A stretch of 64,000 nt of DNA from Bombyx mori (taxonomy: Eukaryota > Arthropoda > Insecta > Lepidoptera > Bombycidae). Below, piece after piece: positions 54,857-62,417 of the stretch; positions within the stretch are counted from its first letter, which is position 1; each line of letters starts with the position of its first letter. The notes beneath the pieces were generated by a model. That model saw nothing but the letters and a program-made list of their open reading frames with translations, was not told the origin of the DNA and searched no databases. The stretch is from positions 2,234,501 to 2,298,500 of the forward strand of contig NC_085126.1 in assembly GCF_030269925.1 (NCBI RefSeq), read 5' to 3'. The translations under genes were made by a program, and so were the position numbers.

Positions 54857-55043
54857 TTAATCTTTATAAAAGTACAAATATTTATAAAAATGCATCCCTT
54901 CGGCGTTCTTCATTAGATATTTACTGATGGCCGTCACCATCTGTTCCTTTGACGAATTAAATTCGTCTAAATGCTGGAACGTATTCGCAACTTTCAAGAA
55001 ATTCAGAGCGGTTTCGTCGTCCGGTCGTACTTCTAAATAATAC
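54857..55043 (-). CDS. Caspase gene, terminal coding exon (C-terminal tail)
   Basis: Minus-strand exon with acceptor attacag before GTATTATTTAG (55043), open for 61 codons to TAA at 54857-54859. It reads YYLEVRPDDETALNFLKVAN and later ISKYLMKNAEG: acidic and helical in character, with no family I recognise. The incoming phase (1 base) exactly completes the 2-base remainder of the exon at 57008-57397, giving Glu at the join. This supports it as part of the caspase. If the upstream donor is not used, translation would stop at TGA 57004-57006 and this exon would be excluded. Confidence 0.65.
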
Positions 55044-55082
55044 CTGTAATGTAACGAACTATGGTTATACTATCATCATCAT

Positions 55083-55288
55083 CATTATCATGCTTTCCTA
55101 TTACCCTCTGCTGGGGTGTAGGGCTCGAATCAAATTTTTCCATTTATATCGGTCTTGGGCAGTCTGTTCTAACTCCTCCCACGTCATGCCCAAGACCCCT
55201 AGCTCCTGCTCCACCGAGCGACGCCAAGTTGTTCTGGGGCGGCCTCTCTTCCTTTTACCAGACACTTTCCAGGTCAGTGCTCTCTTAG
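55083..55288 (-). pseudogene. LINE ORF2 C-terminal fragment in a caspase intron
   Basis: Inverse match to 5390-5600: ctctgctggggt, ggtcttgggcagtctgttc and gacactttccaggtcagtgc. Confidence 0.65.
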
Positions 55289-55296
55289 TTATACTA

Positions 55297-55705
55297 TACT
55301 ATATATTATTTATACTAAAGTGGCGGATGAAAGGCGATTGCATGCAGCAGAGATGCGAATGTTGCGATGGACGTGTGGAGTAACGAGAATGGATAGAATA
55401 CGGAATGAATATGTTAGAGGAAGTCTGAAAGTGCCACCTGTGACAGAGAAGCTGAGAAGTGCGCGTTTGGGATGGTATGGACATGTGATGAGATGAAATG
55501 AAAATGAGGTTGGTAAAAGAGTGTTAACTATGAATGTGGAAGGATATAGAGGAAGAGGTAGACCTAAGAAGAAATGGATGGATTGCGTGAAAGACGATAT
55601 GGGTAAGAGGGGCGTAAGCGAAGAAATGGTATATGATAGAAGAGTATGGAAGGAGAAAACATGTTGCACCGACCCCAGGTAACTGGAAGATGGGCAGGAT
55701 AATGA
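55297..55705 (+). pseudogene. RTE-like LINE C-terminus in a caspase intron
   Basis: The frame reads AAEMRMLRWTCGVTRMDRIR and KLRSARLGWYGHVMR, then a TGA where the sister copy at 29824 has CGA, then GYRGRGRPKKKWMD, ending with a (gat)n-like tail. About 130 codons of a 5'-truncated LINE. Confidence 0.72.
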
Positions 55706-56430
55706 TGATATTATTTATACTATTATATTATATATACCATTATTTACTATTATATATCGGTTATACTATACTATTATTAATCATTAAATCAACGGTACGG
55801 TCCCTTCTGATGTCGCACGGGTCCTTTCGGGCTTATTTCTGAGAATCATGCAAAAATGCATAATTATATAGCTTTTAACTTTGACATTGCTTCGGTAATC
55901 GTTTAAGATCAAGCACGTTGCCCTATTATTATTTTGTTTGAATAATAAATCTTCCCTTCCGTTAAATGACACGCACGAAATATACCCATGCCTTTTCAGA
56001 CAATGATTTTCGAGAATAGTGTCCGAGATTATCTCTCAAACAATAATGCCGAAGTAACTTTTGTGTGTATTTTATTAGTGGTACTTTTAATTAATTAGAT
56101 ACTTTAATTTATACGTATATCTATGTTATTAGCTTTTTTAATAAATCCGTAAATGTAAAATTAAAATTTTTGGAAGTTTTTTTTTACGCAAAGTAAAGGG
56201 ATTAGCTGCCACACCATACTCGATGTTTGCTACTAATAACATGCCATTCGATCTGTTTCGGTTTGAAGTTGGGGCAAGCGCTGTACAATAAAATTGAGAT
56301 TTAATTATTAGTTTCTTAAGAACTATAATCACTTAACACTAGGAAAGCCCTGAATACTTTAACCCGTCTTACGCAATCGATAATGAAAAAATTAAGACAA
56401 AATCGTAGGCGGGAGATGTACGACCGGTCG
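55706..56430. other. Intron sequence without recognised feature
   Basis: AT-rich; a Bm1-like scrap near 56250-56345 (gtttcggtttgaagttgggg). Confidence 0.4.
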
Positions 56431-56433
56431 TTA

Positions 56434-56930
56434 AGTCGGCCACTGACATGCGCGCAAATATTCGTACATTGTAGCGGCTGTGCAAATGGGTTCGCATACT
56501 CAATTTGCGAACCCGTTTGCGCTTCCTCCTACACTTGTTTACGAATGTCTCAAGAATTTCTCCTCCTTTTTAATTCGTCAATAGAACATTGAAGAGAAAA
56601 AGAGTTTTTAATTCTTTCCCAGACATCATTAACAGCCATGCTGTTTTTATGGGGTTTCTTTTGATGAAGATACGCTACACAGTAGACGTCACGAACTATG
56701 AAAATGGCGTATAGTATACGTCCGTTACCTTCGCAATCGTCGGCGCAATTCGGCAAGCGAATGTGTGGGAGACTACGCGAAGGTTCGAGGTTCGCGCGCT
56801 TTGATGTCTGTTAAAAAACCGACACAGCTTGTAAAACCACGAATGCAGCGAAAACTTTACATAATCATTCGCAAATGTCGTCCTACACTTGTGGGTTTGC
56901 GTATTCGTGCGCATGTGAGTGACCGGTGTT
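56434..56930. repeat. Possible MITE in a caspase intron
   Basis: ccactgacatgcgcgcaaat at the left and attcgtgcgcatgtgagtg at the right are imperfect inverse copies. A hairpin gcaaatgggttcgca / ttgcgaacccgtttgc lies inside. No clear target duplication. Confidence 0.5.
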
Positions 56931-57007
56931 ATGCTTAGATTACGGTTCAGGGTATAATCACATACGTTTCATACCAAGTAATCTGGAAAAGAACGAAAGA
57001 AACTCAC

Positions 57008-57397
57008 TCTAAACAGCTTTTCATGTAAAGAAAATGATCTAAATAGCAAGTACATTGTCCGCATTGGACCAATAAATTTGTATCCGGAGTGGATTCGTCT
57101 AACACCTCATTCTTAGATGACTCGCTTATCGCCGGCGTCGGTTTGATCAAGCATTGGCTTACTGGCGGATCCATGTATTTCCTCAGATACAACTTTCTTA
57201 TGAGCGTTGAAGTAATAACCGGCATCTGTTTGTTAATGTCGTATTCCGATGTTCTCCTGTTAAACTCTTTGTGGTATCTATCTATGGCGACTTCTCGTTT
57301 GACTTCGGTTATTATAGACTCTAAATCGTGTGTTTCCGATAATTCGTTTATCTTACTGCACAATGATTGGATGAACCATGATCCGTCGACTTCGTGC
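57008..57397 (-). CDS. Caspase gene, small-subunit (p10) exon with start of the tail
   Basis: Minus-strand exon with acceptor tttccag (57397) and donor GTGAGT (after 57008). Residues 1-72 are caspase p10: GSWFIQSLC near the start, the HDLESIITEVKREVA helix, then NKQMPVITSTLIRKLYL, the usual C-terminal strand. KQMP..T.T-type endings recall caspase-8/Dredd-like initiators. About 58 further residues follow, including CGQCTC, where most caspases have already ended. The donor overlaps an in-frame TGA, so an unspliced form would end here. Caspases are cytosolic Cys proteases acting in apoptosis or Imd-type immunity; which one this is cannot be decided from this part. Confidence 0.82.
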
Positions 57398-57822
57398 CTG
57401 GAAATAGAAATATTTTTTTGTGTTAGAGAAAACGGATAATTCGAGTGAGTCGCCTAAATCGCTTTCAATCGATCCTATTTAGATATGCATTCACTTCATA
57501 CAGAAGCTATTTCCTCCGCGTGAATCTGAGAGTAAATATGAAGCCGTCAGCCTTAGCTTACCATAGCAAGTATCGAGATAATGAGGTCTGAATTTACTTT
57601 TACACTGCTTCGTAGGCAAAAACAATACGCGCTAATATAGTGTTTACAAAGCCATTTGTTATCTATGGGCGAAACTAGAGATAGGCCGGTTTTGCATCAA
57701 AGTTTATTCAGTTTTAAATAAATTACAATAGACATATAAGCACGAATATGAAAAATTGTGCGTTATGTCACTTTTGCGCCGACGGCCTCGTATATTGTAT
57801 AGACTTGCTATCACATCCATGG

Positions 57823-58014
57823 ATATGGAGCCCATAGACATCCACAACGTAAGTGCGCCACCCACCTTGAGATATAAGTTCTATGTTCTCAAGTATAGTT
57901 ACAACGGCTGCCCAACCCTTCAAACCGAAACGTGTTACTGCTTCACGGCAGAAATGGGCACTGTTGTGGTAGCTACCCGCGCGGACTCACAAGAGGTCCT
58001 ACCACCAGTAATTT
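57823..58014 (-). repeat. Bm1 SINE in a caspase intron
   Basis: atggagcccatagacatccac to cctaccaccagtaat; the poly-A end is missing, the headless boundary is intact. Same strand as the gene. Confidence 0.85.
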
Positions 58015-58131
58015 ACCATTCGTCTCAAGTTTTTAAAGAGTCATATGTTAAAAAAAGCTTATTCACGTGTGCTCACAGTCAGACAATAATGTGGGATATT
58101 GCTGAGCTCAGACAAAGTAAGCTAAATATAC

Positions 58132-58286
58132 CTGTGTGATGGTTTCCCGGAGTAAGAACTGTGCAATATCAGCATATCCGCTTCAATTGGCAACACGTAA
58201 GGCTCCAAGTCTTCGTCCAAGTCCTTCCTTAGCTTTCCCGACCTGAAAACTGCCGCACCCTGCATCTCCTCTTTGCCCCTGCATGC
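58132..58286 (-). CDS. Caspase gene, active-site exon
   Basis: Minus-strand exon with acceptor tttgcag (58286) and donor GTATAT (after 58132). It opens with ACRG, the last four residues of the caspase active-site pentapeptide QACRG; Cys is the nucleophile and the Gln should come from the previous exon. It continues through the p20/p10 linker, with several Asp suited to processing (KDLDEDLEPY), then VLPIEADMLILHSSYSG, the conserved ADxL..xS strand of the small subunit. Two bases are left over and are completed by the next exon (SHR-HEVDGSW). The upstream p20 exons with the catalytic His were not found up to 64000. Confidence 0.85.
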
Positions 58287-58299
58287 CTGCAAAGTTTTA

Positions 58300-58634
58300 G
58301 AATTTTGGGTTTTATAGAAAACTTATCAAGTTAAGCTTTTAATATGATAAGAAACGGGGCTATAGCTACCATTCATTCATTCATTCGTGCCGATAAAACC
58401 TAGGAAATATTGAAAATACCGGTAATTGTAGAACAATTTATTAAAAATGAAATAAACGGGTCCTCGGACCATGGAAGCCCCACAAATACTAGAATCAATA
58501 ATCTGGGCTTATGTTAATTATCAGAACGCGTCAGTACAAATTCGGAGGCACCGTCTGTATGCGTAGCGGGATGTTAATTCTCGCCTAGGCAAAGCTCGAA
58601 ATGGAAAGTGAGAAGTCACCCTAGATGGTGGTCT
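58300..58634. other. No recognised feature
   Basis: Checked for caspase p20 exons on the minus strand; none was recognised. Confidence 0.4.
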
Positions 58635-58878
58635 AACTGGTGGTAGGACCTCTTGTGAGTCCGCACGGGTAGGTACCACCACCCCGCCTATTTCTGCCGT
58701 GAAGCAGTAATGCGTTTCGGTTTGAAAAGCGGGGCAGCCGTTGTAACTATACTGCGACGTTAGAACTTATATCTCAAGGTGGGTGGCGCATTTACGTTGC
58801 AGATGTCTATGGGCTCCAGTAACCACTTAAAATCAGGTGGGCTGTGAGCTCGTCCATCCATCAAAGAAATAAAAAAAT
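58635..58878 (+). repeat. Bm1 SINE, headless form
   Basis: It starts taactggtggtagg and ends aataaaaaaataaaaaa, directly before the Jockey-type fragment. Confidence 0.88.
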
Positions 58879-58887
58879 AAAAAAAAC

Positions 58888-59431
58888 TTAGATGGACTTC
58901 CATCCTCTCACAAAGCGTACTGGCAGCTAGCTAGGACTCTTAAGTCGAACCCCCGAGTTACAGACTGATACACCTCCTCTCAACTATAGGCAAACTTTAT
59001 GAGCATCTCCTCCTTAAATGCCTCTGAAACTTTGTCATCTTAAAAGGCTTCTGTTCAGTTTCGATTCCGTACCTATACTTGTGCATCTAACAAGGGCACC
59101 GCTTCACGTAGCACATTTTAGTATGGTCCCACAGAGTCCCTCCCCATAGGAGCCCTCGTCTTCCCTTCAACTCTTCGTTACCGCGAAGAAGTTTAGCTAA
59201 GTTTTGATTTACAAACCACTACTACATGGAAGTGCCCAACAGACTTCTTGTCGAACTGTACGTTACGTTACCTAATTAAACAAACCCGCTCTCGCTCCTA
59301 TCTAATCTCAGCCAGAGTCCCGCAAGGTTCCATTCTTTCCCCACTGCTCATTAGTTTGTACATCAATGATCTATCCTGATCGCCGGCGACCCAGCTAGTC
59401 ACCTTCGCCGATGGTATGGCCCTTCACTACT
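58888..59431 (+). pseudogene. Jockey-type LINE reverse transcriptase, left part
   Basis: PSSHKAYWQLA-type text, then a deletion, then LLSTIGKLYEHLLLKCL (RT motif 1-2 region), RVPQGSILSPLL, YINDLS and TFADGMALHY at the catalytic FADD position, here FADG. Several stops and shifts. The frame is cut exactly by the LTR element and goes on at 63251 (YSSRN). Confidence 0.78.
59427..59431. repeat. Target-site duplication of the LTR element, left
   Basis: ctact, repeated at 63251-63255 on the other side of the element. Confidence 0.85.
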
Positions 59432-59584: not shown

Positions 59585-62417
59585 CTAAATCTCGTTGATC
59601 AGACGGCGGGGTGCCTGTATACGTCGATTACTTCGACGCGGAGCAAATGGCACAGGAGTGGAGACCGGAGCAGGTGAGGAGTATAACTTCGAATGCTGTG
59701 AAGGTGAATTTGGAGAAATTTGTACATTTGTAGGTGACTGCGGTGTAGGTAATGGTACTGCTGCCGAATTCTTGTTTTTAGTTAGCCTTTCGTCAATTGT
59801 TGTGTCCATTCCAATGTCTGGAGAAGCAGTCGCCGGCAGCATAGAAGAATGCGCCCTTTCATTCCTCGGGGTTTCTGAGGTGGAGGACTCGCGTGGCCTG
59901 ATGTGATCAGTGTCTTCGTTTTTCTAGTCCTCCTGGTGTTGAAACAATATATGAATATTTATGTTTTCGGGATGTAATTACCGCTGGTTCCCATATTTTA
60001 TCATTGCGTGTTTTAATATATACTTGGTCACTTGGTCGGTAACTCGGTGATGTGGTACGAATGTTTTCTTTTACTTGTAAATACTGCATTAATCTTCTTT
60101 TGTCTGGCCGAATGTTGGAAAGTATGCAATTCAATTGTCGTCCAAACATCATCTCAGCTGGAGATTTACCAGTGGACGAGTGCGGAGTGTTTCTGTATGT
60201 AAACAAAAATTCTAATAGTCGGCGCTCAAGATTTGTGTTGTCTACCGATGCCATTCTATTTTTGAATGTTCTGACTAAACGTTCTGCCAGCCCATTTGTC
60301 CGAGGATGATATGGAGATGATGTGACATGTAAAATAGACTGTTTTGTGCAATATTCTTTAAATTCATAAGATGTAAATTGAGGTCCATTATCGGATATAA
60401 TCATTTTTGGTAAGCCAAATGTACAAAATATGTTATCTAATGTAAGACAAAGTGATCTGGTGTTAATGTGTTTCATCGGTCGTATTTCCACCCATTTGGA
60501 GAGAGCGTCGCACAATACCAACCAATACGATCCTTCGAACGGTCCAGCAAAGTCGATATGGATTCTCTCCCATACTTCTTCTGGTATGGACCAGGAAAAT
60601 ACAGGAAGTTCAGGATTACAAGGGCGGTTCTGTTGGCATCCGGTACATTTCTTGACAAATAATTCTATGTCTTCGTCAAGGTTAGGCCACCAAACATAGT
60701 AACGTGAAAGTGCTTTCATAGCAGAAATGCCAGGATGTCCTCGATGAAGGTATGTAAGAATGGCTTTTCGGAGTGCTGTAGGTATAACGATGCGTCCTTG
60801 CCTCATAAGTATCTTATTCTCAACAGATAATTCAGTCCGGTTTCTGTAGAATGGTTTCATTTCTGGATTGTAATCTGATTCTCTCCAGCCGGTTTTTAAA
60901 TTTTGACAAACTTTTGTGAGTATATGATCCTTTGAAGTTGTTTTCATAAGTAACTGTTCTGATAGATTAAGGTCAGTCATTCGAGTGCTCAAAAGACGTA
61001 GATCTATTTTATGTACAAGCCCTTCTGTCTCGGAGGGTTCAGTTTCAGGGTTTGGTAATCTGGAAAGGCAATCAGCTAATGTGTTATTTTCACCTTTCCT
61101 GTAGTAAATGTCATATTGATAACTTCCCACTACTAGGGCCCATCTTACCAATCGGTTATTGGCTAGTTTGGGAAGGTTGCGGTGTGCACCCATAATATGT
61201 ATAAGAGGCTTATGGTCCGTAACTAGATTAAATTTCGTTCCTCTCAAGTACTGATCAAATTTTTTTATACCAAATACTATTGCTAAAGCTTCACGATCAA
61301 TAACGGAATATTTCATTTCCGCTGGACGTAGTTTCCTTGAAGCAAAAGCAATTGGTTGTTCTATGTTCGAGTCTTTGTGGAATAATACTGCACCCAATCC
61401 CTTTTCGGAAGCGTCACATGCTAAATAAAGGGGACGTTTCTCGTCAAATGCAATTAATGGTTGTGAAGAAGTTATGCATTTCTTTGTATCTTCAAATATT
61501 CTGTTTTCATGATCAGTCCAACGCCACCTATTTTTTTCACTAGTTAGATCGTGAAGATCCGAACAAATCCCGTGAAGATGTGGTACAAACCGTTCGTAAA
61601 AATTAACTAGTCCTAAAAATGATCGTAGTTCTTTTGCATTACACGGTGCTGGAGCATTAGTTATGGCATCAATTTTAGATTTGGTTGGGTGGATGCCATG
61701 TTTATCTATTATGTGACCTAGGTATTCAATCTGATTCTGTAAGAAATTACATTTCTTTAAGTTAACTTTTAGGCCAGCGTTTTGTAAGCGATCGAATACA
61801 ATAGACAAAGTTTGTAAATGTTCTGAAAGATCTTTCCCTGCTATAGCTATGTCGTCAAAATATACAGCTACATTGGTGATATCGCCTAGCAGTTGATCCA
61901 GAAAATGTTGAAAAATTGAAGGAGCAGTCGATATTCCAAAAGGCATTCTATTGTATTGGAAATACCCTTTATGGGTTGACAACGTTAAGTACTTTTTCGA
62001 ATCTGGTGCTATTTCAAATTGTAAGTATGCGTCTTTAAGGTCTATTTTTGAAAATAATTTACCGTTTGCGAGATTTTAGCGTAGTTGATCGAAAATTGGA
62101 ACTGGGTGAAGATGTTTAATAAGTACTGGATTAAGTGTAGTTCTGTAGTCTCCACATATCCTAACTTCCCCTGTAGATTTCAGAATGTTAACTGTGGGTG
62201 TAGCCCATTCAATAGGTGTAATATTAGGATCTACTTTTTCCACTATCCCTTCTGAGATCAGACGATCTAACTCCCTTTCTATATTCTTTTTCATGCTGAA
62301 TTTTATAGGCCGTGCAGGAAGGTGGATCGGTTCAGCTTCTGGTTTGACATGTATGTTTACGTAATAATTGTTAACTTTTCCTAGTTTTCCATCAAAGAGT
62401 TGTACATGTTTATCCAA
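59585..62417 (-). pseudogene. Gypsy pol: reverse transcriptase, RNase H, integrase
   Basis: The main 691-codon frame (61982-59907) has the RT MPFG and YFDD box (residues 41-44), an RNase H start with LACDAS (about 190), an integrase HHCC zinc region (HPGISAMKALSRYYVWWPN, CTGCQ), and the integrase D,D-35-E residues in IDFAGPF, ISDNGPQF and GLAERLV. The frame continues upstream to 62417 with RT motifs 1-2 but is cut by TAA at 62076-62078. Near the C-terminus, an extra base in the T-run 59919-59923 shifts the last 100 or so codons into the frame ending at 59585. All catalytic residues remain. The element is not competent as it stands: a stop, a shift, a SINE insertion and missing gag. Confidence 0.9.

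What the first reader, a model, noticed from the sequence alone, without database searches (positions are those of the whole stretch)
54857..58286. Caspase gene with an unexplained tail of about 120 residues after the small subunit
Three minus-strand exons with consistent phases encode ACRG, the p10 core and then 58 + 61 extra residues, with a CGQCTC cluster and an acidic helical end. Known caspases mostly end within a few residues of the final p10 strand. The tail may be a lineage-specific regulatory or partner-binding extension. Alternatively, the gene may end at TGA 57004-57006 when the second donor is not used, giving two isoforms with different tails.
Basis: partly seen in the sequence, partly recalled or inferred. 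Interest (0 to 1): 0.78.

Follow-up and report, generated by a model that had tools for sequence, protein, structure and literature searches.

The report
Silkworm Caspase-4 and its known tail
This is the end of the already described silkworm caspase-4 gene, whose extra tail of about 120 residues is real, shared by moths and butterflies, and predicted to be a small three-helix domain on a flexible linker with unknown function.

Summary
The three minus-strand exons join as described and give 243 residues, identical (243 of 243) to residues 255-497 of Bombyx mori caspase-4, G0Y251_BOMMO. The window lies on contig 20 of its own assembly; two more exons just beyond it complete the 497-residue protein without mismatch.

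The tail is already known. In 2011 Courtiade et al. [quoted passage not shown] They ran RACE to get full-length BmCasp-4 cDNA (PMC3141678).

The short isoform is not supported: TGA 57004-57006 is part of the splice donor, and any phase-2 donor reading GTGAGT puts TGA in frame.

New here are details. A tail profile matches 67 of 86 collected proteins. AlphaFold2 predicts a confident helical bundle after a disordered linker with an EVLD-like motif kept in many species. Some tail-less relatives group with tailed ones. One tail query found only this gene in the silkworm genome. What the tail does remains untested.

The parts
58132..58286 (-). Exon 3 of B. mori caspase-4: residues 255 to 306 (last codon split), from the active-site ACRG (its Q is the last residue of exon 2) into the small subunit
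57008..57397 (-). Exon 4: p10 core to residue 377, then linker 378-416 and the start of the tail domain (417-436, with CGQCTC)
57004..57006 (-). In-frame TGA inside the intron-4 donor (GA|GTGAGT): a by-product of a phase-2 donor, not a shown stop
   Evidence: six of 86 homologous proteins end at the same place: five unnamed short-contig entries and one annotated gene model
55044..57007 (-). Intron 4, 1964 bases, GT-AG
54857..55043 (-). Exon 5: residues 437-497 of the tail domain and the true stop TAA

Best explanation
The feature is the 3' part (exons 3-5 of 5) of the known B. mori caspase-4 gene, a Lep-Caspase-4. Shown: the exon joins, identity to the deposited protein, wide conservation of the tail in Lepidoptera. 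Predicted: the tail is a separate three-helix bundle (residues about 422-491, with a short fourth helix) tethered to the p10 end by a disordered linker. Inferred, most likely mechanism: the bundle is a docking or regulatory module that brings the caspase to a partner or to a place in the cell, as the N-terminal death-fold domains do for other initiator caspases. Processing at a conserved aspartate of the linker (D406, in an EVLD-like motif) may separate it from the catalytic core. The confidence given below is for identity and gene structure; for the docking or regulatory role it is about 0.45, and for release by cleavage about 0.2.
For: Identity: 243/243; full 497-residue protein read from five GT-AG exons of the same assembly; contig C20 agrees with chromosome 20 given for Caspase-4 by PMC3141678; RACE of BmCasp-4 stated in its Methods. 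Tail: profile hits in 67 of 86 proteins, 59 of them across at least profile positions 20-65 (the profile's 16 rows come from the same pool and match by construction). Mean frequency of the commonest residue is 0.55 in tail 417-497, against 0.41 in the linker, 0.33 in the prodomain, 0.68 in p20 and 0.75 in p10. Fold: pLDDT 88-97 in the blocks covering 421-490; in a second, more distant protein 90-97 over residues 91-150, which hold most of the three long helices. Linker: D406 is Asp in 0.89 of 55 sequences. One tail query finds only this gene in the genome.
Against: No binding partner, activity change or cleavage has been tested here or was seen in the papers opened. In B. mori the residue after D406 is Glu, a poor P1' residue for caspases (recalled); several sequences lack the aspartate, and the linker's TP at 412-413 is TN in the silkworm. 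Conservation counts are not corrected for relatedness. Proteins with a p10 end but no tail match exist: 6 of 72, so the tail is dispensable in some paralogs if those models are complete. A three-helix bundle is too common an arrangement to point to a function.
Confidence: 0.9

Rival explanations
1. Two isoforms: a short one ending at TGA 57004-57006 when the donor is not used, and a long one with exon 5.
For: The frame does stop right after the donor (frame 57004-57453). One annotated model (P0060, Diatraea) and five short-contig entries end there. Seven ATTAAA/AATAAA hexamers lie in intron 4, in AT-rich DNA.
Against: A TGA in frame is built into every phase-2 donor GTGAGT, so its presence says nothing about use. 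P0006, one of the five, and P0011, which reads on past the border, begin in what looks by eye like intron sequence, as genomic pieces would. RACE was done on BmCasp-4, and the deposited silkworm protein contains the join. The alternative-splicing section of PMC3141678 names Caspase-3 and -5 only.
Confidence: 0.05
2. The tail exon belongs to a neighbouring gene.
For: None found.
Against: The deposited protein spans it, and proteins of many other species carry the same caspase-plus-tail chain.
Confidence: 0.01
3. The tail is a weakly constrained extension without a function of its own, for example one that only helps the folding or stability of this caspase.
For: It is more variable than the catalytic core, and a few paralogs show no tail match.
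Against: It is kept in 66 of 72 proteins with a recognisable p10 end, with near-invariant positions C421, C423, Y430, L435, D445, K468 and K490, and is predicted to fold with high confidence.
Confidence: 0.25
4. The CxC and later C are a zinc site or a lipid-attachment site.
For: C421 is in 56 of the 56 sequences that have a residue there (3 of 59 have a gap); C423 is in 0.97 and C434 in 0.86 of 59.
Against: A fourth ligand is not kept: position 427 is His in only 0.64 of 59. No test of lipid attachment was possible.
Confidence: 0.1

Closest known systems
Bombyx mori Caspase-4 (Bm-Caspase-4, G0Y251_BOMMO)
   Same: Identical over all 243 residues encoded in the window, and over all 497 with the two upstream exons
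   Different: Nothing in the protein sequence
Lep-Caspase-4 clade (Courtiade et al. 2011, PMC3141678)
   Same: Long small subunit, variable last part, conserved cysteines, chromosome 20 in silkworm
   Different: Nothing that excludes it; this report adds a predicted fold and a linker motif
Drosophila Strica and Damm
   Same: Named by PMC3141678 as the related fly caspases
   Different: About 20% identity, and no serine/threonine-rich prodomain in the moth proteins (from that paper); their C termini were not compared here
Three-helix bundles in the PDB (e.g. 7k3h, 3t49, 6gdj)
   Different: 8-13% identity; within the range that the tool marks as common arrangement

Membership tests
Caspase (Pfam PF00656, Peptidase_C14) | Match of the domain above the curated cut-off | tested here: met
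   66.2 bits for the window part against a cut-off of 21.4; 152.1 bits for the whole protein
Caspase (Pfam PF00656, Peptidase_C14) | Active-site QACRG and the THG of the large subunit | tested here: met
   Both are in P0035; ACRG at the start of exon 3
Caspase (Pfam PF00656, Peptidase_C14) | Proteolytic activity after aspartate | not testable with these tools
   No biochemistry available here
Lep-Caspase-4 | Identity with the named member in silkworm | tested here: met
   243/243; all five exons
Lep-Caspase-4 | Small subunit about twice the usual length | tested here: met
   120 residues after the p10 end; definition from PMC3141678
Lep-Caspase-4 | Three conserved cysteines in the last part | tested here: met
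   C421 in 56 of 56 with a residue there, C423 0.97 of 59, C434 0.86 of 59. That these are the paper's three is inferred: its alignment file was not seen
Lep-Caspase-4 | No known death-fold domain in the prodomain | tested here: met
   Only PF00656 matched in P0035 at E up to 0.1
TPR (tail only) | Pfam TPR match above the curated cut-off | tested here: not met
   TPR_9 at 12.3 and 12.8 bits against 35
Death-fold domain (CARD/DED; tail only) | Six-helix bundle | tested here: not met
   By prediction only: three long helices and one short one in two models; six helices as the definition from PMC3141678. A fold relation was not excluded by the fold searches

The most novel reading that the evidence does not exclude
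Lep-Caspase-4 carries, at the C-terminal end instead of the N-terminal one, a moth- and butterfly-specific recruitment domain: a three-helix bundle with no assigned family. It is joined to the catalytic core by a linker with a caspase-like site (EVLD at D406) and could be released on activation. In gelechiid moths the same tail is followed by a hydrophobic stretch that may anchor the enzyme in a membrane.
Probability: 0.15. Interest if true: 0.5.

Novelty: already known. Interest (0 to 1): 0.2.

Why it matters
The gene and its long tail have been in print since 2011, so this finding needs no new category. [quoted passage not shown] A confident separate fold with a defined linker gives clean borders for deletion and point-change tests in silkworm cells.

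Full report
What was checked. Pfam sees the caspase domain in residues 1-122 of this piece (66.2 bits, cut-off 21.4) and nothing above a cut-off in the rest.

What it is. The piece is identical, 243 of 243, to residues 255-497 of a protein named caspase-4 of Bombyx mori, G0Y251_BOMMO. The window's own assembly (461,668,930 bases, 30 contigs) places the window on contig C20 at 2234501-2298500. The contig length of 12,711,775 equals the one listed for the silkworm protein. With two further exons just outside the window (window-equivalent 66391-65809 and 64582-64404) the five exons translate to the 497-residue protein with no mismatch.

The tail is in print. Courtiade et al. 2011 (PMC3141678; I read the abstract, the Results and the Methods) place Caspase-4 on silkworm chromosome 20. 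[quoted passage not shown] They relate it to Strica and Damm and leave its function open. Their Methods state that BmCasp-4 was re-amplified from RNA and that 5' and 3' RACE was done to get full-length cDNA. That G0Y251 is that cDNA is my inference. A 2010 paper describes a BmCaspase-N of 356 residues (PMC3091752, passages and one section read); that it is the same gene is likely but was not checked.

The second isoform. The TGA at 57004-57006 overlaps the donor GA|GTGAGT. In a phase-2 intron a donor GTGAGT always gives TGA as the next full codon, so the stop is expected whether or not it is ever used. Six of the 86 homologous proteins end exactly there. Five are unnamed entries from contigs of about 1.0-1.4 kb, of which P0006, the one I looked at, begins in what looks by eye like intron sequence. 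One is an annotated Diatraea model (P0060). Seven poly(A)-like hexamers occur in intron 4 and one after the true stop, which does not discriminate. No evidence seen favours the short form.

Conservation. Two protein searches gave 86 distinct proteins. A tail profile built from tails of 16 of them matches 67 of 86 at E up to 0.01; 59 of these cover at least profile positions 20-65 and 8 are partial. Of the 19 without a match, ten (P0077-P0086) show no p10 end and appear to stop in or near the large subunit, so they cannot show a tail; P0021, P0022 and P0076 are two caspase fragments and a fish caspase-8. Of 72 proteins with a recognisable p10 end, 66 have the tail match; the six without are P0005, P0014, P0019, P0067, P0074 and P0075. 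P0005 breaks off in the linker, P0014 is labelled partial, and P0067 carries 115 residues there that may be a diverged tail. In a tree of 40 catalytic domains the tail-less Hyposmocoma row P0014 and the two tail-less Cydia rows fall in well supported groups (100/99) that also hold tailed rows, P0013 and P0073. This suggests loss or incomplete models, but the deep forks are open, so the order of gain and loss is not settled. Galleria P0019 is a long branch of unsure place. One tail from another species (Helicoverpa) finds only the two exons of this gene in the silkworm genome at E up to 10.

Structure. AlphaFold2 on 59 aligned sequences gives the usual caspase core, a linker of low confidence (388-419), and helices 423-441, 446-457, 462-482 and 487-491, with block pLDDT 88-97 from 421 to 490. 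A second prediction, on a shorter and more distant protein, gives three long helices (87-110, 115-129, 133-153) with block pLDDT 90-97 over 91-150, lower at their ends; its short fourth helix is weak (block pLDDT 65). Fold searches give no convincing relative; a three-helix bundle is common.

Linker. D406 is aspartate in 0.89 of 55 sequences; E403 and V404 are the commonest residues at 0.57 and 0.67 of 51; positions 412 and 413 are Thr and Pro in 0.80 and 0.87 of 55, though the silkworm has Asn at 413; the linker's mean is 0.41. EVLD resembles a caspase target (recalled), but the silkworm's next residue is Glu. These counts are not corrected for shared descent.

Mechanism. Shown: gene structure and wide conservation. 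Predicted: a separate folded tail on a flexible linker. Inferred: a docking or regulatory module, possibly released by cleavage. Reports seen on silkworm caspase-4 under lead exposure (PMC12295734, passages) do not mention the tail in those passages, and I could not tell whether their commercial kit and antibody recognise this gene.

Verdict. A correct reading of raw sequence that lands on a known peculiarity of a known gene. The open part is function.

Noticed in passing
P0066 and P0068: Caspase-4 of two gelechiid moths (Phthorimaea operculella, Tuta absoluta) has about 50 more residues after the tail, including a hydrophobic stretch (FAFMFMAGVCAYFVY / FALIFIAGLCAYFAY) that may be a C-terminal membrane anchor. 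It is not the most hydrophobic 19-residue stretch of either protein.
   Followed up: partly
window 59907-62075, minus strand: An open frame of 722 codons of a Ty3/gypsy-type element (by eye: reverse transcriptase, RNase H and integrase motifs) lies in intron 2 of caspase-4.
   Followed up: no
window 57800-58040 and 58521-58930: Two similar repeats, SINE-like by eye (name not checked), in introns 3 and 2 of the gene.
   Followed up: no
window 55101-55682: Pieces resembling the ends of LINE-type reverse transcriptases, by eye, on both strands in intron 4.
   Followed up: no
proteins P0003, P0055, P0060, P0072 (Diatraea) and P0007, P0048, P0071 (Chilo): Several caspase-4 paralogs in crambid moths; equal contig lengths suggest that the four Diatraea ones, and two of the Chilo ones, each lie on one contig. 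PMC3141678 reported duplications in Manduca.
   Followed up: partly
L008 and L009 (contig C28 of the own assembly): A weak Peptidase_C14 locus without similarity to the five caspase queries used; its residues suggest a paracaspase.
   Followed up: partly
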